Shown here piece by piece: positions 2,962 to 62,546 of a stretch of DNA of 64,000 nt (within the stretch, counting starts at the first letter, position 1; every line of letters begins with the position of its first letter). Under the pieces are notes generated by a model. The model searched no databases and had not been told where the DNA came from. It was given only the letters and a program-made list of their open reading frames with translations. Both the position numbers and the translations under genes were made by a program. The DNA is from Ancylobacter tetraedralis (lineage in GTDB: Bacteria > Pseudomonadota > Alphaproteobacteria > Rhizobiales > Xanthobacteraceae): contig NZ_JACICD010000008.1 in assembly GCF_014195655.1 (NCBI RefSeq), positions 124,001-188,000 on the forward strand, written 5' to 3'.

Positions 2962-5900
2962 TCAACTTGCCTCACGATAGGTCTCGGCTGTGGCGAGATC
3001 GACCGAGACAAGCTTGGACACGCCGCGCTCGGCCATGGTCACGCCGAACAACCGGTTCATGCGGCTCATGGTGATGGGGTTGTGCGTAATCGTGATGAAA
3101 CGCGTCTCGGTGAGGCGGCGCATCTCGTCCAGAAGGTTGCAGAATCGCTCGACATTCGAGTCGTCGAGCGGCGCATCGACCTCGTCGAGCACGCAGATCG
3201 GCGCCGGATTGGTGAGGAATACCGCGAAGATGAGCGCCATGGCGGTGAGCGCCTGCTCGCCGCCCGAGAGCAGCGAAAGCGATTGCGGCTTCTTGCCCGG
3301 CGGCTTGGCGATGATGTCGAGCCCCGCCTCCAGCGGGTCATCCGAATCGGTCAGCACGAGCCGCGCCTCGCCCCCGCCGAACAACGTGCCGAACAATTGC
3401 TGGAAATGCCCGTCGACCACGGTGAAACTCGCCTGAAGCCGTTCGCGCGCCTCACGGTTGAGGCCGTAAATGCCCTGGCGCAGCCGCTTGATCGCCTCCG
3501 TCAGGTCCTCGCGCTCGGCCGAGAGGCCCTGCTGCTGGCCCTCGACCTCGGCCAGTTCCTCCTCGGCGCGCAGATTGACCGCGCCCAGCCGTTCACGCTC
3601 GCGCTTCAGCCGGTCGAGATCGGCCTCCAACCCCGCAGCGTCGGGCAGCGGCGTATCGGCTTCCAGCCCGGCAATGGTGCGCGCGCTGTCCGGCGGGCCG
3701 TCGAGACTGTCGGAAATCTCACGCAGCACCTGCTCGCGCCGCTCGCGTGCGGCATCCAGCCGCGCCTCGCCGCGCGCGCTTTCCTCGCGCGCCACCGCGA
3801 GCGCGTCGAGCGCGGCGCGGGCCGCGCGCTCGGCCCCCACCTGCGCGCCCTCCCCGCTGGCGAGGCGATCGGCTGATTCGCGCCGCGCGGCCTCGGCCCG
3901 GGCGATCTCGTCGAGCAGGGCGCGGCGGCGCGCGGCGAGGGCCGCCGGGACCTCGTCCAACGCCTCGCGCTCCTCGGCCGCCTCCGCGACGCGTGCCTCC
4001 AGCGCCGCCACCCGCTCGCCCGTGCCGCTGGCGCGGGCCTGCCACGAGGCTCGTTCGCCGGCGATCGCCTGCAGGCGACGCACGCGCTGCTCGCGCTCGC
4101 GGGTGAGCCCCTCGGCGCGGGCTCTCGCTTCCGCCAGCGCCGCCCGGTCCTGCGCCACGCGGCTGCGGGCCTCGACCAGATGCGCCTCGCTCTCCATTCC
4201 GGCCGGCAGTTCGGCCAGTTGCGCCTGCGCGCCCATCAGTCCGGCGGCGCTGGCGACGCGCTCCGCATCCAGCCGATCGAGGCTCGCGGCCAGCGCGGAA
4301 AGCTTGGCCTCCTGCTCGGCGGCCTGCCGCTCGGCACGGGCAAGGTCGTCGCGCGTCGCTTCCATGGCACGCAGCGCCGCACGGCGGGCCTCGCGGGCGG
4401 CATTCTCGCGCGAGCCGGCCGCGCGCAGGGCCGCTTCGGCGCTCTCGAGCGCGCGGCGATGCTGGGCCACCTCGGCCCGCGCGGCGATCCGCTCCGCCTC
4501 GATATCGGCCAGCCGGTTGCGCTCGGCGAGGCGCCGCGCGGCGGCGGTCGGCGCATCGGCCGCCGCGGTCAGCCCATCCCAGCGCCACAGGTCGCCTTCG
4601 CGCGAGACCAGCCGCTGGCCCGGCCGCAGCTGGGCCGCAAGGCGCGCGCCCTCGCTCCGTTCCACCACGCCGATCTGCGCGAGGCGGCGCGCCAGCTCGG
4701 CCGGCGCCTCGACATGGCGGGCGAGCGGCTCGGCGCCCGACGGCAGCGGAGCATCGCCGTCATCGGGCGTCAGCGCCCAGTGCACGGGGGCACCGACATC
4801 GGCCGGGGCGTCGAGATCATCGCCCAGCGCCGCGCCGAGCGCCGTCTCGAAGCCGCGCGCCACGCGGATCTGATCGATCACCGGCGCCCAGCGGCGCGGC
4901 GCGCCGACATCGAGCAGCTTGGCGAGGGTGCGGGCCTCGGTGTCGAGCCGCTGCGCCACGCGCTCGGCCTCGGCGAGCGGACGGCGGGCGTGATCGAGCG
5001 CGGCGCGGGCCTCCCCATGGGCGGCCTCGGCCTCCTGCGCCGACGCCTCGGCGGCCTCGAAAGCCTCGCGGGTGATTTCGGCGCTGGCGCGGCGCTCCTC
5101 GAGGCGCACGCCGTCGACGCCCGCCTCCAGCCGGCGCCGCTCCTCGGTGAGTTGAGCGACATCACGCTCCAGCCGGGCATGGCGCTCGCCCGCCTCGCGC
5201 ACCGAGCGCTCCAGCGCGCCGCGCCGGGCGGCGCGCTCGGCATGGCTGGCGGTGGCCTCGGTGAAGGCGCGCTCCGATTCGGCCAGCGCCTGCGCGGCGT
5301 CCTCACGCGCCTCGCCCGCCTCCCCCTCGGCCTCCGCCGCCTCTTCCTGGAGTGCGGCGAGCTCCTCGGCTTCCTCGGCCAGCCGGCCCAGCACGCTGCC
5401 GGCATCGGCGGCGAGCGCGCGCTCGCGCTCCATGTCGCCGGCGAGCTGGGACAGGCGGCGATCCAGCTCGGCGCGGCGGGCGTCGGCGCGCGCCTCCTCG
5501 CGGTCGAGCTCACCCTGCGCCAGCGTCAGACGCTGCAGGGCGGCCGCGCTCGCGGCATCGGCCTCGCGCAGCGCCGGCAACCCATGAGCGGCGATGGCGG
5601 CGAGCCGGGCGCTCTCGCCCTGCTGCACGGTGCGTTCCGCCACGGACCGCACCGCGAGGTCGAGCGCGCGGCTCGCCTCGTTCAGCGCCCCGGAGGCCTC
5701 CAGCCAGCGCAGCCACAGCAGCGTCGCCTCCGCCGTGCGGATATCGGTGGAAACGGCACGGTAGCGCGCCGCCTGGCGCGCCTGGCGACGCAGCGCGTCG
5801 AGCTGGCTGGCGATCTGGCCGATCACGTCGTCGAGCCGGGTGAGATTGGCCTCGGCGGCCCGAAGGCGCATTTCCGCCTCGTGCCGGCGGGCATGCAGGC

Positions 5901-6414
5901 CGGCAACGCCCGCCGCCTCTTCCAGCAGCCGCCGGCGGGCCGTGGGCTTGGCCCCGACGATCTCGCCGATCTGCCCCTGCCGCACCATGGACGGAGAGCG
6001 CGAGCCCGAGGAAGCATCGGCGAACAGCATCTGCACGTCGCGCGCGCGCGCCTCGCGCCCGTTGATGCGGTAGGCGGAGCCGGACTCGCGCTCGATGCGC
6101 CGGGAGATTTCCAGCAGGTCGGCATCATTGAACACCGCCGGGGCGGAGCGGTCGCCATTGTCGACGACGAGCACCACCTCGGCGGTGTTGCGCGAGGCGC
6201 GCGTCGTGGTGCCGCCGAAGATGACGTCATCCATCCCCTCGGCGCGCATCGCCTTGTAGGAATTCTCGCCCATCACCCAGCGCAGCGCCTCGACCAGGTT
6301 CGACTTGCCGCAGCCATTCGGGCCCACGATGCCGGTGAGGCCGGGCTCGATCAGCATGTCGGTCGGCTCGACGAAGGTCTTGAAGCCGGTGAGACGCAGG
6401 CGGGTGAATTTCAT
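2962..6414 (-). CDS. smc: Chromosome segregation protein SMC
   Basis: This is the SMC ATPase of bacterial condensin, which compacts and segregates the chromosome with ScpA and ScpB. It has 1150 residues, a normal length. The N-terminal head begins MKFTRLRLTGFKTFVEP and has the Walker A loop GPNGCGKSN (about 31-39). Two long Arg/Glu/Ala coiled-coil arms flank a central hinge. The C-terminal head carries the ABC signature SLLSGGEQALTAMAL and Walker B ICVLDEVDAPLD. The start at 6414 is chosen because MKFTRL is the conserved family start; the frame stays open upstream, but nothing there resembles SMC. The gene is convergent with nothing and divergent from the Lrp-type gene. Confidence 0.97.
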   Translation of the reverse strand: MKFTRLRLTGFKTFVEPTDMLIEPGLTGIVGPNGCGKSNLVEALRWVMGENSYKAMRAEGMDDVIFGGTTTRASRNTAEVVLVVDNGDRSAPAVFNDADLLEISRRIERESGSAYRINGREARARDVQMLFADASSGSRSPSMVRQGQIGEIVGAKPTARRRLLEEAAGVAGLHARRHEAEMRLRAAEANLTRLDDVIGQIASQLDALRRQARQAARYRAVSTDIRTAEATLLWLRWLEASGALNEASRALDLAVRSVAERTVQQGESARLAAIAAHGLPALREADAASAAALQRLTLAQGELDREEARADARRAELDRRLSQLAGDMERERALAADAGSVLGRLAEEAEELAALQEEAAEAEGEAGEAREDAAQALAESERAFTEATASHAERAARRGALERSVREAGERHARLERDVAQLTEERRRLEAGVDGVRLEERRASAEITREAFEAAEASAQEAEAAHGEARAALDHARRPLAEAERVAQRLDTEARTLAKLLDVGAPRRWAPVIDQIRVARGFETALGAALGDDLDAPADVGAPVHWALTPDDGDAPLPSGAEPLARHVEAPAELARRLAQIGVVERSEGARLAAQLRPGQRLVSREGDLWRWDGLTAAADAPTAAARRLAERNRLADIEAERIAARAEVAQHRRALESAEAALRAAGSRENAAREARRAALRAMEATRDDLARAERQAAEQEAKLSALAASLDRLDAERVASAAGLMGAQAQLAELPAGMESEAHLVEARSRVAQDRAALAEARARAEGLTREREQRVRRLQAIAGERASWQARASGTGERVAALEARVAEAAEEREALDEVPAALAARRRALLDEIARAEAARRESADRLASGEGAQVGAERAARAALDALAVAREESARGEARLDAARERREQVLREISDSLDGPPDSARTIAGLEADTPLPDAAGLEADLDRLKRERERLGAVNLRAEEELAEVEGQQQGLSAEREDLTEAIKRLRQGIYGLNREARERLQASFTVVDGHFQQLFGTLFGGGEARLVLTDSDDPLEAGLDIIAKPPGKKPQSLSLLSGGEQALTAMALIFAVFLTNPAPICVLDEVDAPLDDSNVERFCNLLDEMRRLTETRFITITHNPITMSRMNRLFGVTMAERGVSKLVSVDLATAETYREAS

Positions 6415-6632
6415 ATCCCGAGGGTGCCGCCCCGTGACCACAAGTTCAAGTGGCATGGATGGCACGATCCACGACATGTTGCGTTGCGTGCGACTCCGCG
6501 CCTCCCGCGGCGGCGGATCGCGCGGCCGGTCAGCAGGGCTGACCAAAGACCAATTGCCGGCTGGCGGCTTCTGCCGGCAGATTGAGCTTCGACGAACCAT
6601 CCTGCCCTGAATTCCCGACATGGAGGCAGAAC

Positions 6633-8301: not shown

Positions 8302-9864
<1,563 letters not shown>

Positions 9865-9871
9865 GCGGCCG

Positions 9872-10477
9872 GTGATCACGCTTTACGACGTGCCGGACTC
9901 CGGCAACAGCTACAAGGTCCGCCTCGCCGCCGCGCATCTGGGTGTGCCGCTGCACCGCGTCACCATGTCCTCGCGCGACGGCTCGACCCGCCATGCCGAC
10001 TTCCTCGCCAAGAACCCCATCGGCAAGCTGCCGACGGTGGAACTGGAGGACGGACGCTTCCTCGCCGAGTCGAACGCCATCGTGCTCTACCTCGCCGAGG
10101 GCAGCCCCCTCGTTCCGGCGGACCGCTATGAACGCGCAAAGACCTATGAATGGCTGTTCTTCGAGCAGTACAGCCATGAGCCGGCTCTCGCGGTGAGACG
10201 GGCGCTGTTCATCTATGAAGAGCGAGCGCATCTGGCGACGCCCGAGCGGCTGGCACAGCTTCTCGAGGCCGGCAACCGCGCGCTCACCGTCATGGAGACG
10301 CGGCTGGCAGGCGCAGACTGGCTCGCGGGCAACGCCTTCAGCGTCGCCGACATCGCGCTCTATGCCTATACGCACACGGCTGAGGAAGGCGGCTACGATC
10401 TGGCTGGCTTTCCCGGCGTGCGGCGGTGGCTGGCCCGCATCGCCGCCCTGCCCGGCCATATCGGGCTGATGGACTGA
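9872..10477 (+). CDS. Glutathione S-transferase family protein
   Basis: This is a cytoplasmic glutathione transferase of 201 residues. The N-terminal thioredoxin-like domain covers about 1-78 (ITLYDVPDSGNSYKVRLAAAHLGVPL, with NPIGKLPTVELEDG and the glutathione-contacting ESNAI). The C-terminal helical domain covers about 85-200. The start codon is GTG, 7 bases after the ccrM stop, so the two genes may be co-transcribed. The substrate is unknown. A hairpin terminator follows. Confidence 0.9.
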   Translation: MITLYDVPDSGNSYKVRLAAAHLGVPLHRVTMSSRDGSTRHADFLAKNPIGKLPTVELEDGRFLAESNAIVLYLAEGSPLVPADRYERAKTYEWLFFEQYSHEPALAVRRALFIYEERAHLATPERLAQLLEAGNRALTVMETRLAGADWLAGNAFSVADIALYAYTHTAEEGGYDLAGFPGVRRWLARIAALPGHIGLMD

Positions 10478-10487
10478 TCAAACAACA

Positions 10488-10507
10488 AGGCCGCCCTGGG
10501 GCGGCCT
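10488..10507. terminator. Terminator between the GST gene and csbD
   Basis: A perfect 8-bp stem, AGGCCGCC / GGCGGCCT, with a 4-base loop is followed by CATCGTTTTC on the plus strand and TGTTGTTTG on the minus strand. It separates two convergent genes and can serve both directions. Confidence 0.75.
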
Positions 10508-10529
10508 CATCGTTTTCGGGCAGGATCGG

Positions 10530-10718
10530 TCAGAGATTGGCGGCCTTCTTGACCGCATCCTTGGCCTTGCCGACGGCCTGCTGGCCCTCGCCCTTGAGCT
10601 CCTGGACCTTGCCCTCGGCCTGCAGCTTCTCCGAGCCGGTCATCTTGCCGACGCCCTGCTTCACATTGCCGACGGCCTCGTTGGCGAGACCCTTGGCCTT
10701 ATCCGCGGCGCTACCCAT
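10530..10718 (-). CDS. CsbD family stress-response protein
   Basis: This is a small hydrophilic protein of 62 residues in the CsbD family, which is induced by general stress in many bacteria and has no known biochemical activity. It is rich in Lys, Ala and Gly, with the family pattern [20 protein letters not shown]...[27 protein letters not shown]. The start at 10718 is preferred because the family begins with MGS-x-D-K and a GGAG lies nine bases upstream. Two in-frame ATGs further up (10733, 10748) are possible. Confidence 0.85.
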
Positions 10719-10806
10719 CGTTGCGTTCTCCATGTCTGCCGCCTTCATCCGCGGCCTGCCGGAATAACGCGCGACCCCCAGCGAAGTTCAATGGAGCGGC
10801 GGCAAT

Positions 10807-11910
10807 TTAGCCGATATACTCCAATACCTTACGCATGACCGAGGGAAAGGCCTCGGCATCGAAGCCCTCCGGCCGCACCCATCGATGCCCCGCTGGCGCG
10901 GGCGTGACAGCCGGCGCGCGCGCGCGCCAGATCGCGAGTTCCAGCGCGAAATGGCTGAACACGTGCCCGACCGTGGCATTGAGCGGCTGCCATTCCAGAG
11001 CCATCGGCGCCGCGAGGGCGGGGTCGGCCGGGCCGCCTTCGATCCAGTCCGTGGAGGGCACCTCACTCATGCCGCCGAGCAGCCCTCGCGGCGGGCGCGA
11101 GCGCACCAGCACCGCCCCATCCGCGCGCACCGCGAGGAAGGCGACGCCCTGCCGGGTGGGTCGCGCGGCCTTGGCCGCCTTCACCGGGTAGCGCTCGGGC
11201 GCGCCGGCCGCATGGGCGGCGCAGTTCGTCCGCCACGGGCAGAGCGCGCAGGCCGGCTTGCGCGGGGTGCACAAGGTGGCGCCGAGATCCATCATCGCCT
11301 GCGCGAAATCGCCATGGCGGCTCGACGGCAGCAATGTGAGCGCCAGTGCGCGCAGCCGCGCCTTCGCCTTGGGCAGCGCCTCCTCCACCGCGAAAAGCCG
11401 CGCGATCACGCGCTCCCAATTGCCGTCGACCGCCGCCGCCCGGCGCTCGAAGGCGATGGCGGCGATGGCGGCGGCGGTATAGGGGCCGATGCCGGGAAGC
11501 TCCAGCAGCGCGGCCTCGGTGTCCGGGAAGGCGCCGCCATGGCGCTCCACTACCGCGCGGGCGCAGGCGTGAAGGTTGCGGGCGCGGGCGTAGTAGCCGA
11601 GCCCCGCCCAGGCCGAGAGCACGTCTTCGAGCGGGGCGCCAGCCAGCGCCGCCACCGTCGGCCAGCGCGCGAGGAAGGCCGCGTAATAGGGCGTGACCGT
11701 CACCACATTGGTCTGCTGCAGCATGATCTCGGAGAGGAAGACGCGATAGGGATCCTGCCGCACGCCCGCCTCGGCGCGCCAGGGCAGCCGCCGCCGGTGC
11801 CGGTCATACCAGGCGAGCAGCGCGCCCGGATCCGGGGCCGACCTCGAGGCCGGAACCGGGCGGGAGGGATCGGGACGCGGGGGATTGGCTGGATCGGCGG
11901 AGCGCGGCAT
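10807..11910 (-). CDS. mutY: A/G-specific adenine glycosylase MutY
   Basis: This DNA repair enzyme removes adenine mispaired with 8-oxoguanine. It has 367 residues. The catalytic domain contains the conserved MLQQTNVVTVTPYYAAFLARWPT, the helix-hairpin-helix LLELPGIGPYTAAAI, and the downstream catalytic Asp in VDGN. The 4Fe-4S cluster loop has the correct spacing C-x6-C-x2-C-x5-C (CTPRKPACALCPWRTNC). The C-terminal NUDIX-like domain reads the 8-oxoG strand. The first 30 residues are a Pro/Arg-rich extension that is not conserved. It is divergent from the DUF721 gene, a common neighbour of mutY in this order. Confidence 0.96.
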   Translation of the reverse strand: MPRSADPANPPRPDPSRPVPASRSAPDPGALLAWYDRHRRRLPWRAEAGVRQDPYRVFLSEIMLQQTNVVTVTPYYAAFLARWPTVAALAGAPLEDVLSAWAGLGYYARARNLHACARAVVERHGGAFPDTEAALLELPGIGPYTAAAIAAIAFERRAAAVDGNWERVIARLFAVEEALPKAKARLRALALTLLPSSRHGDFAQAMMDLGATLCTPRKPACALCPWRTNCAAHAAGAPERYPVKAAKAARPTRQGVAFLAVRADGAVLVRSRPPRGLLGGMSEVPSTDWIEGGPADPALAAPMALEWQPLNATVGHVFSHFALELAIWRARAPAVTPAPAGHRWVRPEGFDAEAFPSVMRKVLEYIG

Positions 11911-54200: not shown

Positions 54201-55559
54201 TCAGGGTTTGCGCGCCGCCAGCTCGCGAAAATGCCCGCGCGCCTGCAGATAGGCGAGGATGCCGAGCCCCGGCAGGGCGGCCAGCGCGGTCACGGCGAAG
54301 AACACCATCCACCCCGTCTGCGCCGCCACGAAACCGGCGGTGGAGGCCAGGAAGGTGCGCCCCACCGCCGCCAGCGCGGTGAGAAGCGCATATTGCGTGG
54401 CGGTGTGCGCCCGGTCGCCGCACAGCGCGGAGATATAGGCGACGAAGATCACCGTGCCGATCGCGCCGGTGAAATTCTCGATGATGATGGTCAGCGTCAG
54501 CGCGCCGAGATCCACCCCCATCCACGCCTGCCAGGAAAACACGAGGTTCGACGCCATCTGCAGGATGCCGGCGATCCACAGGCTCGTCACCAGCGGCAGC
54601 GCGCGGGCGATCATCCCGCCGGCGAAGCCGCCAAGCAGCGCGGCGGCGAAGCCCACGCCCTTGACGATGCCGGCATAGGCCGCCTTGTCGAAGCCGATAT
54701 CGATGACGAAGGCGCCGGTCAGAACCCCGGCAAAGGCATCGCAGAACTTGAAGAACACCACGAAGCCGAGCACGGCCACCGCGCTGCGGCGCGAGAAGAA
54801 CTCGCCGAAGGCGCCGACCGCCGTCTCGCCGATGCGCGCGAACACGCCCACATCATTGGAACTCACCGGCCCGCCCGCCGGCTCCTTGGCCAGTAGCGTG
54901 GCGATGAAGCCGACGCTCACCATCAGCGCGGCGGCGATGTAGCCATAGGCCCACACATTCGCCCGCGCGACGCCGATCGTCTCGAACCACGCGACCAGCA
55001 GCACCACGCCGGCGCCCGAAGCCAGCATGCCCACGCGATAGGCCGCGACATAGCCGGCCATGCCGGCCGCCTGCTCGCGCGTCTCCAGGCTCTCCACGCG
55101 GAAGGCATCGACCACGATATCCTGCGTCGCCGAGGCGCAGGCGACGAGGAAAGCGCCGAGCGCGACATGCCAGGGCGACAATACCGGGTCCTGGAAGCCC
55201 AGCCACACCACGGCGAGCGCCAGCAAACCTTGCGTGAACACCAGCCAGCCACGCCGCCGCCCCAGCCAGCGCCCGAGCAGCGGCACGTCCAGCGCATCGA
55301 CCAGCGGCGCCCAGATGAACTTGAAATTGTAGGGAACGCCGACCAGCGCGAACAGGCCGATCGTGGTGAGGTTCACCTTGGCTTCCGCCATCCAGATGGT
55401 CAGCGTCGCACCGGAAAGCGCCAGCGGCAGGCCGGAGGAAAAGCCGAGCAGGATGACGATGAGCACACGCGGGCGCAGATAAACCGCGAGGCTGGCGAGG
55501 AAGCCGTCCTCGGCATCGGGGCCCCGCACGGGGGCGGCATCCTTGACGGCCTCGGTCAT
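54201..55559 (-). CDS. ampG: AmpG-type muropeptide permease (MFS)
   Basis: This is an inner-membrane MFS transporter of 452 residues that imports muropeptides released during peptidoglycan turnover. It has about 12 helices. The family landmarks are VLIVILLGFSSGLPLALSGATLTIWMAEAKVNLTTIGLFALVGVPYNFKFIWAPLVDAL, TQDIVVDAFRVE and FKFCDAFAGVLTGAFVIDIGFDKA. AmpG activity can influence beta-lactamase expression, but no ampC/ampR gene is in the window. The assignment to AmpG rather than a general MFS protein rests on these motifs. Confidence 0.9.
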   Translation of the reverse strand: MTEAVKDAAPVRGPDAEDGFLASLAVYLRPRVLIVILLGFSSGLPLALSGATLTIWMAEAKVNLTTIGLFALVGVPYNFKFIWAPLVDALDVPLLGRWLGRRRGWLVFTQGLLALAVVWLGFQDPVLSPWHVALGAFLVACASATQDIVVDAFRVESLETREQAAGMAGYVAAYRVGMLASGAGVVLLVAWFETIGVARANVWAYGYIAAALMVSVGFIATLLAKEPAGGPVSSNDVGVFARIGETAVGAFGEFFSRRSAVAVLGFVVFFKFCDAFAGVLTGAFVIDIGFDKAAYAGIVKGVGFAAALLGGFAGGMIARALPLVTSLWIAGILQMASNLVFSWQAWMGVDLGALTLTIIIENFTGAIGTVIFVAYISALCGDRAHTATQYALLTALAAVGRTFLASTAGFVAAQTGWMVFFAVTALAALPGLGILAYLQARGHFRELAARKP

Positions 55560-55657: not shown

Positions 55658-55703
55658 GTCCGGCACGTCAGTCCGGCACGTCAGTCCGGCACGTCAGTCC
55701 GGC
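55658..55703. repeat. 13-bp tandem repeat reaching into the transglutaminase gene end
   Basis: The unit GTCCGGCACGTCA occurs three times in a row (55658-55696), followed by a partial fourth copy (GTCCGG to about 55702). The stop codon of the transglutaminase gene (TGA, 55694-55696 on the minus strand) is the last triplet of the third copy. Confidence 0.9.
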
Positions 55704-56605
55704 TCGGGCTCTCGGGCGGGCGAGGCATCGGGCATCGGGATGACGTCGACCTCGACCGAGAGCTTCTGCTTGCCCGAGCCGATCAGCACGCCGCCGATCG
55801 GCGCCACGTCGCTATAATCGCGGCCATTGGCCAGCACGACATGGTCGGTCGCCACGATCAGCGCATTGGTCGGATCGAGCCCCTGCCAGCCATCCTCTTC
55901 CCCGCACCACACCGACACCCAGGCATGGGTCGCGTCCGCGCCCTGCAGCCGCTCCTTGCCGGGCGGCGGCTCGGTGCGCAGGAAGCCCGAGACATAGGCG
56001 GCCGGCAGCCCGAGCCCGCGCAGCCCGGCGATCATGATATGGGCGAAGTCCTGGCACACGCCGGCCCGCAGGTTGAACGCCTCCAGCGCCGGCGTGGTGA
56101 CGTCCGTCGCGCGCGGATCGTAGGTGAAGTCGGCGTAGATCCGGCGCATCAGGTCGATGGCGCCGGCCAGCATCGGCCGGCCGGCCGGGAAGCTCTTCGC
56201 GGTCCAGTCGGTAATGGCCGGGCTCAGCGGCACGGCAGGGCTGGGAAACATGTGGTGCGCCGGCGAGTTCGGGCCGGGATCGAGGCAGGACGAGGCCGCC
56301 TCGCGCACCGCCTCCCAGGCCGGCGAAGCGGCGGGATCGAGCGCCGGCCCCGCCGTCACCTCCACCCGAGCCCGCGTGCGCACCCGGAATTGGGTATGCG
56401 GCGTCTCGATGCGGATATGCACCACCGTATTGCCGAAGAAATCGCGCGTTTCGATCCACTCCACCGGCTCGGGCTCGACCGCGAAATGGCTCGCCACCAC
56501 CCGCTGGCCCGGCCGGGCGACCGGGACCATGCGCACCACATGGCGGGCGACCGGCACGGCATGGGCATAGGAATAGGCCGTGGTCTGGTGAATGTCGTAG
56601 ATCAT
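55694..56605 (-). CDS. Transglutaminase-like (COG1305) protein
   Basis: This cytoplasmic protein of 303 residues has an N-terminal beta domain (MIYDIHQTTAYSYAHAVPVARHVVRMVPV, typical of bacterial transglutaminase-like proteins) and a papain-like core with the triad C184 (RAGVCQDFAHIMI), H228 (DATHAWVSVW) and D244 (GLDPTNALI). The fold can cleave or form amide bonds. It is the last gene of a three-gene operon with the ATP-grasp/alpha-E and DUF2126 genes, ten bases after the former. The C-terminal tail is Pro/Glu-rich and ends at the 13-bp repeat. The substrate is unknown. Confidence 0.92.
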   Translation of the reverse strand: MIYDIHQTTAYSYAHAVPVARHVVRMVPVARPGQRVVASHFAVEPEPVEWIETRDFFGNTVVHIRIETPHTQFRVRTRARVEVTAGPALDPAASPAWEAVREAASSCLDPGPNSPAHHMFPSPAVPLSPAITDWTAKSFPAGRPMLAGAIDLMRRIYADFTYDPRATDVTTPALEAFNLRAGVCQDFAHIMIAGLRGLGLPAAYVSGFLRTEPPPGKERLQGADATHAWVSVWCGEEDGWQGLDPTNALIVATDHVVLANGRDYSDVAPIGGVLIGSGKQKLSVEVDVIPMPDASPAREPEPD

Positions 56606-56615
56606 GGCGCCCGCC

Positions 56616-59129
56616 TCACGACACCAGATCCCACGGTGTTTCCACCGGCTGGCGATGGATGAAATAACGCTCGGCGACGTCGTTCGACAGTTCCATCAGC
56701 TGGCCTTCGATCTCGCGCAGGCGCGCGTCGTCGAAGTCGAGCGCGTCGAACGCCCTCATCGAGGCGACGAGGCGGGCGGCGAGCCGCTCTTCCGGCGGGG
56801 GCGGCTCATCCCCCAGATGACCCGGCAACTGGTCGAGATGCGCCATGATGGCGTCGATCTGGTAGGCCAGCGAGCGTGGATTGACCGATTCCAGCAGCAC
56901 CAGGTCGAGCACCGGCGCGCGGCTCTCCACCATCACATAGCGCGAGCGGTAGGTGATCTGGCTGTCGCACAGTTCCAGCAGCACATCGAGCGCGCCGGCG
57001 GTGGGCGCTTCGCCGGCCAGCGTGCGGGCGAAGCGGCAGGTGGCGATGGCCCGCTCGATGCGCCGGCCGAGATCGAGGAAGCGCCAGCCGGCAAGCCGGT
57101 TCATGTTTTCCGAGGCGAGGCCGGAAAAGGCGGCGAGCGCCCGGAGCGCGCGGTCGGAACGCTCATAGGCGTCCGGCTCGGCGGTGGCGGCGGGCACCGG
57201 CTCGGCCATCATCAGCGAGAGGTCGGCGAGCGTGCGCCAGGCATCCGGCGACAGGCGGTCGCGAATGACCGAGGCGGTATGGCGCGCCGCCTCGATGATG
57301 TTGGGCAGAGAACCGTTAAGGTCGCGGCGCGTCAGGGCGGCCAGCGCATGCCGCGCCGGCTTGGTGGTGGCGAGATCCGCCGGCATCGCGCCCCAGAGCT
57401 GCAGCAGGCTCACCAGCCCGCCGAGCGAGGATCCCCCGCCCTCCAGCGAGGAGGACAGCCGGCCCATCAGCGTGCGCAGCAGCCGCAGCGTCGTCTCGGC
57501 CCGCTCGATATAGCGCCCGAGCCAGAAGAAATTATCCGCCGCCCGGCTCGGCAGCGGGCCGGTCTGGCGCTTGATCTCCACCCGGTCCACCGCTGGCAGC
57601 AGCGAGGTTTGCTCGGTCGGGCCAGCGTCGAGCACCCACACATCCGTCGAGCGCCCGCCGCTCTGCATGGTGACGGCGCGCGCGTCCAGGCTGTCGGACA
57701 CCCGGCAGAAACCGCCGGGCATCACCTTCCAGCCGGTCTCGGTCGCGGTGAGGAAAATGCGCAGGATGAACGGGCGCGGCTGCAGCTTGCCGTTGCACCA
57801 GACCGGCATGGTGGACAGGCGCGCCGCCTCCTGGCCGACGAAGTCCACCCCGCGCGTGCGGATCGCCGCCTTGATGCGGGCACGGTGGGCGCGGTCGAGA
57901 TCGGCGCCGATCACCGAGCCCTTGTCGAGCAGGCCGGGCAGCGTGCGCTGGAAGGCCGGCGAGATGACGAGGTCCTCGAAACTGTCGAGCACGCGTTCGC
58001 GCTCGGCCTTCTGGCCGCACCACCAGGTCGCGACATTGGGCAGGATCGGCGCCTCGCCCAGCACGCGCTGGCCGAGCTTGGGCAGGAAGCCCATCAGCGC
58101 GGGCGCCTCCACCACGCCGACGCCGACGGCGTTCACCACCGCCACCCCGCCGGAGCGGATGGCCTGCACCAGCCCGGGAATGCCGAGCCGCGAGCGCGAA
58201 TTGAGCTCCAGCGGGTCGGCATAATCGGAATCGAGGCGGCGCAGCAGCACGTCCACCCGCTTCAGGCCGGCCACCGTGCGCACGAACACCACATTGTCGC
58301 GCACCGTGAGGTCCTCGCCCTCCAGCAGCACGAAGCCGAGATAGCGCGCGAGATAGGCGTGCTCGAAATAGGTCTCGTTCAGCGGGCCGGGCGTGAGCAG
58401 CCCCACCCGCCCCTCGCCCGAGCGGTCCAGCCGTGTCAGCCCGGCCCGCATCGCCTGGAAGTAGCTCGCCAGCCGCACCACGTTCAGCGAACGGGCGAGA
58501 TCGGGCAGCGCGCGGCCGATGGCGATGCGGTTCTCCAACGCATAGCCCGCGCCGGACGGCGACTGGGTGCGGTCCGACACCACCCACCAGCTCCCGTCCG
58601 GGCCGCGCCCGACATCGGCGGCATAGATGCGCAGGAAAGTGCCGCCATTCGGGTCGACGCCGACCATCGGGCGCAGGAAATCCGGTGAGCCGGCGATGGC
58701 GGCGGCCGGCAGCGCGCCCGAGCGCACCAGCTGGCCATCGCCATAGATATCCGCCAGCACGCCCTCGACCAGCTGGGCGCGCTGGATCAGGCCGCGCTCC
58801 AGCGCCTGCCATTCGCGCTCGTCGATGACGAGCGGCAGATGCGACAGCGGCCAGGGACGCTCGCCGCCATTGGGATCGTCATAGACGCGGTAGAACACGC
58901 CGGAGCGGTAGAGGTGCCGGTCAGCCGCCTGGAAGCGCCGATTGACCTCCTCCACGCCCATCTCGGCGAGCGCCGCGAGCATGGAATGCCAGTGCGCGCG
59001 CGGGTGCCCCTCGGCATCCACGAGTTCGTCATGCACGCCAGGCAGCGTCTTGTACCCCGCCAACAGCGCCTCGACCGCCTCTTCCTCGAAGCGGCGTGTG
59101 CGCGCCTGTGGCTCACTGCGTCTGGGCAT
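56616..59129 (-). CDS. Circularly permuted ATP-grasp and alpha-E fusion protein
   Basis: This 837-residue protein joins two families that are usually separate. Residues to about 500 form the circularly permuted type 2 ATP-grasp domain (COG2308: LERGLIQRAQLVEGVLADIYGDGQLVRSGALPAAAIAGSPDFLRPMVGVDPNGGTFLRIYAADVGRGPDGSWWVVSDRTQSPSGAGYALENRIAIGRALPDL). Residues from about 530 form the alpha-helical alpha-E domain (COG2307: NFFWLGRYIERAETTLRLLRTLMGRL ... ESVNPRSLAYQIDAIMAHLDQLP). ATP-grasp enzymes join an acid to an amine using ATP. The gene is between the DUF2126 gene and the transglutaminase gene. Confidence 0.92.
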   Translation of the reverse strand: MPRRSEPQARTRRFEEEAVEALLAGYKTLPGVHDELVDAEGHPRAHWHSMLAALAEMGVEEVNRRFQAADRHLYRSGVFYRVYDDPNGGERPWPLSHLPLVIDEREWQALERGLIQRAQLVEGVLADIYGDGQLVRSGALPAAAIAGSPDFLRPMVGVDPNGGTFLRIYAADVGRGPDGSWWVVSDRTQSPSGAGYALENRIAIGRALPDLARSLNVVRLASYFQAMRAGLTRLDRSGEGRVGLLTPGPLNETYFEHAYLARYLGFVLLEGEDLTVRDNVVFVRTVAGLKRVDVLLRRLDSDYADPLELNSRSRLGIPGLVQAIRSGGVAVVNAVGVGVVEAPALMGFLPKLGQRVLGEAPILPNVATWWCGQKAERERVLDSFEDLVISPAFQRTLPGLLDKGSVIGADLDRAHRARIKAAIRTRGVDFVGQEAARLSTMPVWCNGKLQPRPFILRIFLTATETGWKVMPGGFCRVSDSLDARAVTMQSGGRSTDVWVLDAGPTEQTSLLPAVDRVEIKRQTGPLPSRAADNFFWLGRYIERAETTLRLLRTLMGRLSSSLEGGGSSLGGLVSLLQLWGAMPADLATTKPARHALAALTRRDLNGSLPNIIEAARHTASVIRDRLSPDAWRTLADLSLMMAEPVPAATAEPDAYERSDRALRALAAFSGLASENMNRLAGWRFLDLGRRIERAIATCRFARTLAGEAPTAGALDVLLELCDSQITYRSRYVMVESRAPVLDLVLLESVNPRSLAYQIDAIMAHLDQLPGHLGDEPPPPEERLAARLVASMRAFDALDFDDARLREIEGQLMELSNDVAERYFIHRQPVETPWDLVS

Positions 59130-59234
59130 GCCGACCTCTATGCGCGCCCGAGACCCACCGAGGCAACCCGCTCGTGACCGCGCCGGCGTCGCGGTCCACC
59201 ACTCGATGCGCGCGGGCTCCCTCCATCGCCCGGG

Positions 59235-62200
59235 TCAGACCCGGGCCGGTCGTCGGAGGTCGAGCGTGGCCGGGAATTCCGACGACGGCTCCTCGGGCGG
59301 CACGAACAGATAGCCCGGCGTGTGGCCATAATCCTGGAAGCGCGCCAGACGGCGCGCCTGCGCCTCGTAGGAATTCACCGGGAACGTGTCGTAGTTCCGC
59401 CCGCCCGGATGCGCCACATGGTAGACACAGCCGCCCAGCGAGCGGTTGGACCACAGGTCGACGATGTCGAAAGTCAGCGGCGCGTGCACCGGAATGGTGG
59501 GGTGCAGGCCCGAGGCGGGCTGCCACGCCTTGAAGCGCACGCCGGCGACGAACTCGCTGAACCGCCCGGTGGGCCCCAGCGGCAGGCGCCGGCCGTTGCA
59601 GGTGATGATGTGGCGGATCGGGTTCAGCCCCTCCACCTTCACCTGCAGGCGCTCGACCGAGGAATCGACGAAGCGCACCGTGCCGCCGACCGCCCCTTCC
59701 TCGCCCAGCACATGCCACGGCTCCAGCGCCTGGCGCAGTTCCAGCGTCACGCCGCCATGCTCGACCTGGCCGAAATAGGGGAAGCGGAACTCACGCTGCG
59801 CCTCGAACCAGCTCGGATCGACCCGGTAGCCGGCGCGGCCGAGATCGTGCAGCACATCGAGGAAATCGGCCCACACATAATGCGGCAGCATGAAACGGTC
59901 GTGCAGCGCCGTGCCCCAGCGGGCCAGCGAGCCCTCCTGCGGCTCGCGCCAGAACCAGGCGATGAGCGCGCGCAGCAGCAATTGCTGGGCGAGGCTCATG
60001 CGCCAGTCCGGCGGCATCTCGAAGGAGCGGAATTCGACCAGGCCCAGTCGGCCGGTCGGCCCGTCCGGCGAGAACAGCTTGTCGATGCAGATTTCCGAGC
60101 GATGGGTGTTGCCGGTGACGTCGGTCAGCAGATTGCGGAACAGCCGGTCGACCAGCCAGGGAGGGGGCGTCTGCCCCTTGCCCGGCGCCGGCACGTTGGC
60201 CATGGCGATTTCGAGCTCATAAAGCGAATCGTGCCGTGCCTCGTCGATGCGCGGCGCCTGGCTGGTCGGACCGATGAACAGACCCGAGAACAGGAAGGAC
60301 AGCGATGGGTGTCGCTGCCAGTAGGTCACCAGGCTCTTGAGCAGGTCGGGCCGGCGCAGGAACGGGCTGTCCGCCGGAGTGGCGCCGCCCACCACCACAT
60401 GATTGCCGCCGCCCGTGCCGGTGTGGCGCCCGTCCACCATGAACTTCTCGGTGCCGAGCCGCGACAGCCGCGCTTCCTCATAGAGGTCGCGGGTGATCTC
60501 GACGCAGGTCTTCCAGTTCGCGGCCGGATGCACGTTCACCTCGATCACGCCGGGATCGGGCGCGACGCGGATGACATTGAGCCGCGGATCGACCGGGGGC
60601 GTATAGCCCTCGATATGCACCGGCATACCGAGGTCGCCCGCCGTCACCTCGATGGCGGCGAGCAGTTCGAGATAGTCTTCCAGTCGCTCGGTCGGCGGCA
60701 TGAATACGCAGAGCCGGCCATCGCGCGGCTCGATCGTCAGCGCCGTGCGCACCGCCCCGGTGCCGGTCAGCACCTGGTCGACCTGCTCGGTATGGCCGTC
60801 CTCGGTCGAGGTGCGGCGATAGAGCTGGTGCAGCGTCTCGACATCCGGCAACTCGCCGGTGATCGTCATGGGGTCGGCGGGATTGACGTAAGGGTACGCC
60901 GCGGGCGGCACCCAGGGCAGCGCGGCCAGCGGCAGGCGGAAGCCGACCGGCGAATCGCCCGGCATGAGGAACAGCTTGCCGCGGCGGAAGCGCCATTTCT
61001 CGCTGACCCAGCCGCGTTGCGCCCGCGCCTGCCAGCGCTGCACCGGCAGCACATAGCCGGTCGGCCGGCCAAGGCCGCGCTCGAACACGCGGGCGATCCG
61101 CGCACGGTCCTCCGGGCTCTCCAGCTTGGAATCGAGCGGGTCCACATTCACCGGCAGGTCGCCCTCCTTGAGGATCCAGTGGGCGGGATCCTCATAGGCG
61201 GGTTCGACATAGCCCGGCGCGAGGCCGAGGCGCTCGGCGAGGCCCTCGGTGAAGACGCGCGCCTCCTCCGGCCCCGCGCCGGCAAGATTCTCGGTGGCGA
61301 TCAGGTTGGGATCGCGCCAGATCGGCCGACCGTCCTTGCGCCAGTAGAGCGAGAAGGTCCAGCGCGGCAGGCTCTCGCCGGGATACCACTTGCCCTGGCC
61401 GTAATGCATCATGCCGCCGGGGGCGAAGCGCCGGCGCAGGCGGCGGATCAGGTCGTCGGCGCGCATGCGCTTGGTGGGCCCGACGGCGGAGGTGTTCCAC
61501 TCCGCGCCCTGGTAGTCGTCGATCGAGATGAAGGTCGGCTCGCCGCCCATGGTGAGGCGGACATCCTGCGCCGCGAGATCGGCGTCGACCTTGTCGCCGA
61601 GCGCGTCCAGCGCCGCCCAGGCATCATCCGAGAAGGGCAGCGTGACCCGCGGCTTCTCCGCCACGCGCGTCACGCGCATGATGAAGTCGAACTCGGTCTT
61701 GGTGTCCTCGGTGGCCGTGTAGCCGCCGGTGATGGCGGCGGCAGAGGTGTAGTTCGGGGTGGCGCAGAGCGGCAGGTGGCTCTCGCCGCACAGAAGGCCC
61801 GAAGTGGGGTCGAGGCCGATCCAGCCCGCGCCGGGCAGGTAGACCTCGCACCAGGCGTGCAGGTCGGTGAAGTCGACCTCGGTGCCGGTCGGCCCGTCCA
61901 GCGCCTTCACGTCGGGCTTGAGCTGGATGAGGTAGCCGGAGACGAAGCGCGCGGCGAGGCCGAGCCGGCGCAGGATCTGCACCAGCAGCCAGCCGGAATC
62001 GCGGCAGGAGCCGGAGGCCAGCGCCAGCGTCTCGTCGGGCTTCTGCACGCCCGGTTCCAGGCGGATGAGGTAGCCGACCTTCTGCTGCAGCGTGCGGTTC
62101 AGCTCGACCAGGAAGTCGATCGTGGTGACCGGGCCGTTCGGCCGCACCTGCTCGACATAGGCGTCGAGCAGCGGGCCGCCCTCCTCCAGCTCGAGATAGG

Positions 62201-62546
62201 GAATGAGTTCCTTCGCCAGATCCGCGGGATAGGCGAAGGGGAAGCCCTCGGCGAATTCCTCGATGAAGAAATCGAACGGATTATAGACCGTCATGTCCGC
62301 GATGAGATCGACCTCGACGCGGAACTCGGTGGTCGGCTCTGGAAAGACGAAGCGCGCCATCCAGTTCCCGAAGGGGTCCTGCTGCCAGTTCACGAAGTGG
62401 TTCGAGGGGGTGACCTTGAGCGAATAGCTCTTCACCGGGGTCCGGCAATGGGGCGCGGGACGCAGACGGATGATCTGGGGTCCCAGCGTGACCGGCCGAT
62501 CATACTTGTAGGCCGTGACGTGATGCAGGCTGGCAAAGATTGTCAT
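59235..62546 (-). CDS. DUF2126 family protein with N-terminal transglutaminase-like domain
   Basis: This is a 1103-residue protein, the COG4196/DUF2126 family. The N-terminal 290 residues are a transglutaminase-like module with the triad C181 ([16 protein letters not shown]), H230 ([12 protein letters not shown]) and D246 ([11 protein letters not shown]). The remaining 800 residues are the DUF2126 region ([15 protein letters not shown]-like [71 protein letters not shown]). This region has been linked to glutamine-synthetase-type ligases. The start at 62546 ([19 protein letters not shown]) is the family start. It is first in the operon. Confidence 0.92.

What the first reader, a model, noticed from the sequence alone, without database searches (positions are those of the whole stretch)
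55694..62546. Three-gene amide-bond operon: DUF2126, permuted ATP-grasp/alpha-E fusion, transglutaminase
One minus-strand operon carries two transglutaminase-like triads (C181/H230/D246 in the large protein; C184/H228/D244 in the small one), an ATP-grasp fused to an alpha-E domain, and the DUF2126 region. Together they can activate, join and cut amide bonds. Comparative work on amidoligases has predicted that these families make or recycle an unknown peptide, often together with the proteasome-like peptidase Anbu. No Anbu gene lies in or next to this operon. No product or cellular target is known, so this is the best candidate for an undescribed system in the window.
Basis: partly seen in the sequence, partly recalled or inferred. 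Interest (0 to 1): 0.7.

Follow-up and report, generated by a model that had tools for sequence, protein, structure and literature searches.

The report
Known amide-bond operon, degenerate ATP-grasp
These three genes are an ordinary copy of a widespread bacterial operon long predicted to make or edit small peptides; the part expected to use ATP has lost residues its relatives keep, and a relative that still has them sits elsewhere in the same genome.

Summary
In detail: three minus-strand genes encode TGase-DUF2126, CP-ATP-grasp/Alpha-E and a TGase. One slip: the small TGase histidine is H227, not H228. Triads are invariant in the relatives aligned. The system is not undescribed: the trio is contiguous in 68 of 73 named loci with room, from the 80 best matches, and Pfam calls DUF2126 a putative amidoligase.

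Two corrections matter. The fused ATP-grasp is very probably a pseudo-ligase: six residues kept in 43 of 43 standalone relatives are all lost in 102 of 113 fused ones; the other 11 keep one. And a paralogous Anbu operon with a standalone-type ATP-grasp lies elsewhere in this genome. In the class sample 40 of 44 DUF2126 genomes have a standalone-type ATP-grasp, two more only fragments; one of these, G264, is near-complete and a possible exception.

So the operon is probably an accessory module whose ATP-grasp chemistry is supplied in trans, with DUF2126 its remaining ligase candidate. My evidence that DUF2126 is glutamine-synthetase-like is weak. Product and target are unknown.

The parts
59235..62546 (-). 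Gene 1: N-terminal TGase-like region (Pfam stretches at residues 7-82 and 142-247; triad C181/H230/D246) fused to DUF2126 (residues 281-1098), 1103 aa
   Evidence: Pfam; residues; invariant in 24 of 24 aligned
59253..61706 (-). DUF2126 domain, putative amidoligase; remaining ATP-ligase candidate of the operon
   Evidence: weak glutamine-synthetase-like signal; none for flanking segments
56616..59129 (-). Gene 2: circularly permuted ATP-grasp (residues 99-478) fused to Alpha-E (residues 526-823), 837 aa; ATP-grasp judged catalytically degenerate
   Evidence: window has S185, R187, S390, a gap, I455 and T487 at the six positions; AlphaFold2 model pLDDT 86.1
55694..56605 (-). Gene 3: TGase-like protein, 303 aa, triad C184/H227/D244
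   Evidence: solved relatives by profile 3isr and 6g49/TgpA
54201..55559 (-). AmpG-family muropeptide MFS transporter, same strand, 134 bp downstream; a neighbour, probably not part of the system
   Evidence: TIGR00901, 424.2 bits; among the 80 named loci found in place only in Ancylobacter gelatini L149

Best explanation
The operon is one copy of a known, widespread amidoligase module. SHOWN by sequence: both TGase-like domains keep complete triads; DUF2126 keeps many invariant charged residues; the ATP-grasp domain fused to Alpha-E has lost acidic/Asn residues, a lysine and a glycine-rich loop that every aligned standalone relative keeps; a standalone-type ATP-grasp with these residues, an Alpha-E, a TGase and Anbu are encoded together elsewhere in the genome. 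INFERRED: the lost residues are ATP/Mg ligands, so the fused protein does not ligate but binds substrate or scaffolds; DUF2126 is the ATP-dependent ligase of this operon; the ATP-grasp of the Anbu-type operon supplies a second ligation in trans, as a GS-fold ligase and an ATP-grasp synthetase follow each other in glutathione synthesis; the TGase domains cut or transamidate the resulting amide bonds. The product is probably a small peptide or isopeptide, perhaps made under nitrogen limitation.
For: Six positions kept in 43 of 43 standalone ATP-grasps; 102 of 113 fused ones keep none and 11 keep one; PDB 3n6x has the same intact motifs; one branch with support 1.0 splits the two types. 40 of 44 DUF2126 class genomes have a standalone-type match, G231's covering profile 105-374 only; G127 and G264 have fragments that score higher with the standalone model; G099 and G255 are 84% and 63% complete. 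57 genomes have the standalone type with neither DUF2126 nor the fused type, so the relation is one-way. 34 of 44 DUF2126 genes lie within 9 kb of a fused Alpha-E; 4 of the other 10 lie within 9 kb of Anbu. All 19 genomes of the genus examined have one DUF2126 and two Alpha-E matches. The fused ATP-grasp model resembles 3n6x (TMt 0.84), then eukaryotic-type glutathione synthetase and glutathionylspermidine synthetase. In P. putida, PP_2686-2688 of the operon PP_2685-2688 rise in nitrogen limitation (PMC7801951, passages).
Against: No enzyme here has been assayed. G264 is near-complete (100%, 1% contamination) and shows only a 75-position fragment of a standalone ATP-grasp, whose frame stops about 115 bases before the end of the stretch fetched; its own DUF2126 is also interrupted by a stop and its genus mates G039 and G167 have the standalone type, so it is unclear rather than decisive. 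Residues were checked in 43 standalone proteins, not in every one of the 105 genomes. GS-like support for DUF2126 is thin: GS matches only at E 0.75-1.4; hhalign Prob 2.3; 2 of 200 column permutations score as high; no signal against GCS2 or for N- and C-terminal segments (75 and 149 of 200 permutations as good). Within the 107 Alpha-E genomes DUF2126 and Anbu are independent (31 of 43 vs 47 of 64). Co-occurrence is not corrected for phylogeny or genome size. The nitrogen link is carried over from a paralogue: PP_2685 itself barely moved in two of three strains, and PMC5666114 reports unchanged expression of the Anbu operon under various other conditions (passages).
Confidence: 0.6

Rival explanations
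1. Self-sufficient peptide ligase operon: the fused ATP-grasp activates a carboxylate, DUF2126 extends, TGases trim; no outside partner is needed.
For: Compact conserved order (68 of 73 named loci with room); many other residues are still shared by fused and standalone ATP-grasps; G264, near-complete, shows only a fragment of a standalone ATP-grasp.
Against: Ligand-type residues lost in the fused type; a standalone-type ATP-grasp in 40 of 44 DUF2126 genomes, fragments in two more.
Confidence: 0.12
2. Protein-tagging system: the ligases attach a peptide to proteins and Anbu or the TGases remove it.
For: One of the published hypotheses for the Anbu operon, as summarised in PMC6376114 (passages); an Anbu operon is in the same genome; 4 of 44 DUF2126 genes lie within 9 kb of Anbu.
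Against: Within Alpha-E genomes DUF2126 and Anbu are independent; 0 of 43 fused Alpha-E genes lie within 9 kb of Anbu; the Y. bercovieri study detected no Anbu peptidase activity and no specific interaction among the operon proteins (PMC6376114).
Confidence: 0.2
3. Peptidoglycan or muropeptide recycling, suggested by the AmpG-family gene just downstream.
For: AmpG-family gene 134 bp downstream on the same strand; also in place in Ancylobacter gelatini L149.
Against: Among the 80 named loci only L149 shows it; among the 56 neighbourhoods only the window's own locus (L094) and L145, where it is on the other strand beside a copy without DUF2126.
Confidence: 0.04

Closest known systems
Amidoligase system with CP-ATP-grasp, Alpha-E, TGase and Anbu (Iyer et al. 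2009, PMC3268129; not held, known here through citing papers and recall)
   Same: Same families; TGase fused to DUF2126, ATP-grasp fused to Alpha-E, separate TGase. Pfam names DUF2126 'Putative amidoligase enzyme'.
   Different: I found nothing in the window that departs from it, except that Anbu is in a separate paralogous operon. Recalled, from no call: Pfam's text for PF14403 says that inactive forms are often fused to Alpha-E and that the system has a TGase fused to a circularly permuted ligase.
Four-gene Anbu operon (ATP-grasp, Alpha-E, TGase, Anbu)
   Same: Paralogous ATP-grasp, Alpha-E and TGase; a copy is in the same genome
   Different: There Alpha-E is separate, the ATP-grasp keeps the residues lost here, Anbu is present and DUF2126 absent
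Eukaryotic-type glutathione synthetase / glutathionylspermidine synthetase
   Same: Fold of the ATP-grasp domain (TMt 0.50-0.66 for glutathione synthetases, 0.34-0.43 for glutathionylspermidine and trypanothione synthetases)
   Different: 10-15% identity in those rows; the window protein lacks the residues and carries Alpha-E
rlo operon of Pseudomonas aeruginosa (PMC12239564; passages)
   Same: Pairs an ATP-grasp protein with a TGase-like protein and a peptidase
   Different: RimK-related ATP-grasp, membrane-bound inactive TGase, retropepsin-like peptidase; 'alpha-E' does not occur in its text, and no paper of the library holds 'DUF2126'

Membership tests
Amidoligase (DUF2126 / Alpha-E) system | TGase-like domain fused to DUF2126 | tested here: met
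Amidoligase (DUF2126 / Alpha-E) system | CP-ATP-grasp and Alpha-E encoded next to it | tested here: met
   same order in 68 of 73 named loci with room
Amidoligase (DUF2126 / Alpha-E) system | Separate TGase-like gene with intact triad | tested here: met
Active ATP-grasp ligase | Residues and glycine-rich loop kept by standalone relatives and 3n6x (ATP/Mg-ligand role recalled) | tested here: not met
   S185, R187, S390, gap, I455, T487 in the window; 102 of 113 fused relatives keep none of six, 43 of 43 standalone keep all
Anbu operon | Anbu peptidase gene in the operon | tested here: not met
   no Anbu hit in L094 around the window operon; present at G000:C3:364563-365306
Glutamine-synthetase-like ligase | GS-type fold and catalytic motifs in DUF2126 | tested here: inconclusive
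Any of these | Demonstrated amide ligation or cleavage | not testable with these tools
   needs biochemistry

The most novel reading that the evidence does not exclude
A two-locus pathway: the DUF2126 operon is an accessory extension of the Anbu-type ATP-grasp core. Its own ATP-grasp has become a substrate-presenting pseudo-ligase fused to Alpha-E, and the paralogue that keeps the catalytic residues acts in trans, so the two operons together build and edit one peptide.
Probability: 0.4. Interest if true: 0.6.

Novelty: already known. Interest (0 to 1): 0.38.

Why it matters
The operon is common and its families were named years ago, yet no product is known. If its ATP-grasp is degenerate and the competent one is encoded elsewhere, that changes which proteins should be tested together. 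The Anbu-operon study of which I saw passages (PMC6376114) found phosphate release by the ATP-grasp but no specific interaction among the operon's proteins and no peptidase activity. If the two operons form one pathway, DUF2126 and the pseudo-ligase are candidates for the missing partners in such assays.

Tried and rejected
AmpG/murein link: among the 80 named loci the downstream AmpG gene is in place only in A. gelatini, so rejected. Other conserved neighbours: clustering of flanking ORFs gave one cluster in 11 loci (its sampled member is an ABC transporter ATPase) and small ones; of 10 proteins sampled from inserts and clusters 9 hit general families (kinases, cytochrome c, LysR, metal resistance, ABC, solute binding, helicase) and one hit nothing. 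Nitrogen regulation of this operon: a loose NtrC-like pattern in 9 of 80 upstream regions against a shuffled mean of 2.7 and maximum of 6, but five of the nine are Mesorhizobium; sigma-54-like sites (one mismatch allowed) in 2 of 80 against 0.6. The window is one of the nine, with a GCAC-N5-GTGC palindrome 93 bases before the start; no sigma-54-like site was found there or in the stretch before the paralogous operon. GS homology by hhalign: the first try was uninformative because the positive control GS vs GCS2 also failed; with more diverse alignments the control gave Prob 84.6 and DUF2126 vs GS Prob 2.3. Conditional coupling of DUF2126 to Anbu: not found. Literature: searches for DUF2126, Alpha-E/ATP-grasp/TGase, amidoligase/Anbu terms, Rv gene numbers recalled from memory, COG numbers, product names, ancestral beta subunit and inactive ATP-grasp terms listed no functional study of DUF2126. 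Passages only were seen of PMC12239564, PMC5666114, PMC6376114, PMC3597751, PMC12096838, PMC7801951, PMC9284123 and PMC8407117. Iyer 2009 is not held, so I cannot say what it already states.
Full report
CHECK. Pfam gives TGase domains plus DUF2126 (1345.3 bits), CP_ATPgrasp_2 plus Alpha-E, and a TGase. Gaps are 105 and 10 bp; the triads are C181/H230/D246 and C184/H227/D244, so one residue number in the finding is off by one. Triad residues are invariant in the 24 large proteins aligned, chosen from the 44 class genomes with DUF2126, and in the 23 small ones.

WHERE IT IS. The window is G000:C8:124001-188000. The nearest named relative of the large protein is from Ancylobacter gelatini at 89% identity, so the genome is probably Ancylobacter or close; no rRNA test was made. 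All 19 genomes of the genus examined, G000 included, have one DUF2126 match and two Alpha-E matches.

HOW COMMON. Of these 80, 7 lack room downstream; 68 of the other 73 have DUF2126, ATP-grasp/Alpha-E and TGase in a row with gaps under 1 kb; five do not. The 68 include metagenome-assembled genomes labelled Planctomycetaceae (L222) and Nitrospirales (L224) and a Pseudomonas isolate (L228). In a class sample DUF2126 is in 44 of 289 genomes. Of the 44 neighbourhoods fetched, 40 had room; 29 show the trio by the script's rule, plus L102, where the large gene is split by a stop; 10 do not. I found no other broadly conserved neighbour.

THE SECOND OPERON. The same genome has, on contig C3 near 360-365 kb, a CP-ATP-grasp, a LysE-type gene, a standalone Alpha-E, a TGase and a protein hit by the Proteasome model at 21.3 bits, just under its 22.4 cut-off. 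That protein begins MTYC, and as a query it finds relatives in 81 of 289 class genomes, G000 included. I read it as Anbu from its length, start and operon context; no library names it so.

PARTITION. Of the 150 Alpha-E hits listed for the class sample I called 43 fused (frame of 780 or more residues and under 245 bits) and 107 other. 34 of 44 DUF2126 genes lie within 9 kb of a fused Alpha-E; 0 of 43 fused ones lie within 9 kb of Anbu, against 51 of 107 others; 4 of 44 DUF2126 genes lie within 9 kb of Anbu, all four among the ten without a fused neighbour. DUF2126 co-occurs with Alpha-E in 43 of 44 genomes, and with Anbu in 32 of 44 against 49 of the 245 others; but inside the 107 Alpha-E genomes DUF2126 and Anbu are independent, 31 of 43 against 47 of 64. 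The shared core, not Anbu, is what DUF2126 follows.

THE ATP-GRASP IS DEGENERATE. I aligned 113 fused ATP-grasps with 43 standalone ones: 13 from the neighbourhoods, after dropping one truncated row (L194), and 30 from standalone Alpha-E loci. Grouping used fusion to Alpha-E, not the residues. Positions E256, N258, K464, G471, D524 and N556 (numbering of the paralogue in L093) are kept in 43 of 43 standalone proteins; in the fused ones they are kept in 1, 0, 8, 1, 0 and 1 of 113; 102 keep none and 11 keep one. Two further positions are less clear-cut: G470 is kept in 36 and K564 in 35 of 113 fused proteins. At the six the window has S185, R187, S390, a gap, I455 and T487. PDB entry 3n6x has the intact motifs. 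One branch with support 1.0 separates the two groups. That E-x-N, the lysine and the glycine-rich loop match the Mg and ATP ligands of eukaryotic-type glutathione synthetase is recalled knowledge; the fold match comes. I also recall, from no call, that Pfam's text for PF14403 mentions inactive forms often fused to Alpha-E, so the degeneracy is probably known in outline.

TRANS-DEPENDENCE. In the same 289 genomes 110 have a PF14403 match; 105 have a standalone-type one and 43 a fused one, and two (G069, G239) have weak matches that the capped list did not show. 40 of 44 DUF2126 genomes have the standalone type; G231's copy covers profile 105-374 only. Of the four exceptions, G127 has a fragment at a contig edge and G264 a 75-position fragment; both score higher with a standalone-type than a fused-type model. 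G264's fragment has a stop about 115 bases before the end of the stretch fetched, so an intact copy is not shown there; G264 is near-complete, its own DUF2126 is interrupted by a stop, and its genus mates G039 and G167 have the standalone type. G099 and G255 are 84% and 63% complete. Taking the 38 DUF2126 genomes that are at least 90% complete and at most 5% contaminated, 37 have the standalone type and G264 is the exception (counted by hand). 57 genomes have the standalone type alone, and the 8 genomes with the fused type but no DUF2126 also have it. The relation is one-way, but it is not corrected for phylogeny or genome size, and residues were not checked in every genome.

DUF2126. The AlphaFold2 model of the whole protein has pLDDT 74.0 and pTM 0.67. 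Foldseek finds TGase-like proteins first (3isr, TgpA) and, among the top 50 rows, six glutamine synthetase or gamma-glutamylmethylamide synthetase chains at E 0.75-1.4, which is weak. Profile comparison with GS aligned [13 protein letters not shown] and GTGGGNH with stretches that I recognise as GS catalytic motifs (recalled), at Prob 2.3; 2 of 200 column permutations scored as high; GCS2 gave no signal, nor did flanking segments against GS. Pfam's label therefore rests mainly on published analysis, not on mine.

MECHANISM. Shown by sequence: intact TGase triads, a degenerate ATP-grasp, a standalone-type ATP-grasp elsewhere. Inferred: DUF2126 ligates; the fused pseudo-ATP-grasp/Alpha-E presents substrate or scaffolds; the standalone ATP-grasp adds a second residue in trans; the TGases cut or transamidate. 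The analogy is glutathione synthesis, where a GS-fold ligase and an ATP-grasp enzyme act in turn (recalled). From papers, passages only: the Y. bercovieri ATP-grasp releases phosphate from ATP, no specific interaction was detected and Anbu showed no peptidase activity (PMC6376114); of the P. putida operon PP_2685-2688, whose first gene that paper likens to a proteasome beta subunit and I equate with Anbu, PP_2686-2688 rose 11- to 37-fold in nitrogen limitation while PP_2685 rose 1.1- to 4.8-fold (PMC7801951); expression of the Anbu operon is reported unchanged under various other conditions (PMC5666114); these domains associate with urea metabolism domains in marine metagenomes (PMC3597751); in Sinorhizobium meliloti a regulatory region of a COG2308 (CP-ATP-grasp) gene was among association hits for competitiveness (PMC8407117). 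Regulation of the window's operon itself was not shown.

VERDICT. An ordinary member of a known, unexplained system. The useful additions are the measured loss of the ATP-grasp residues in the fused type and the nearly one-way dependence on a standalone-type paralogue.

Noticed in passing
L093:9974-10597 (G000 contig C3): A LysE-type translocator gene lies between the ATP-grasp and Alpha-E genes of the paralogous Anbu operon; in the 10 other neighbourhoods with such a standalone pair the two genes are adjacent.
   Followed up: no
L093:12564-13310 (Anbu): The Anbu protein scores 21.3 bits with the Pfam Proteasome model, under its 22.4 cut-off (scored on a longer frame), so automatic annotation may miss it.
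   Followed up: partly
G000:C3:353736-354704 (about L093:1737-2705): A glutamine-synthetase-type gene (243.5 bits) lies about 6 kb before the ATP-grasp of the Anbu operon and about 8 kb before its Alpha-E; G304 of the same genus has the same spacing to its Alpha-E.
   Followed up: no
L102 (G264) 8546-11845; L105 (G124) 3121-6468: DUF2126 reading frames interrupted by stops; described only.
   Followed up: no
L104, L108, L109, L117, L148: The operon is followed directly by a second, standalone ATP-grasp and Alpha-E pair; in L148 without DUF2126; in L114 the pair is convergent.
   Followed up: partly
window 54201-55559: AmpG-family transporter directly downstream, also in A. gelatini L149.
   Followed up: partly
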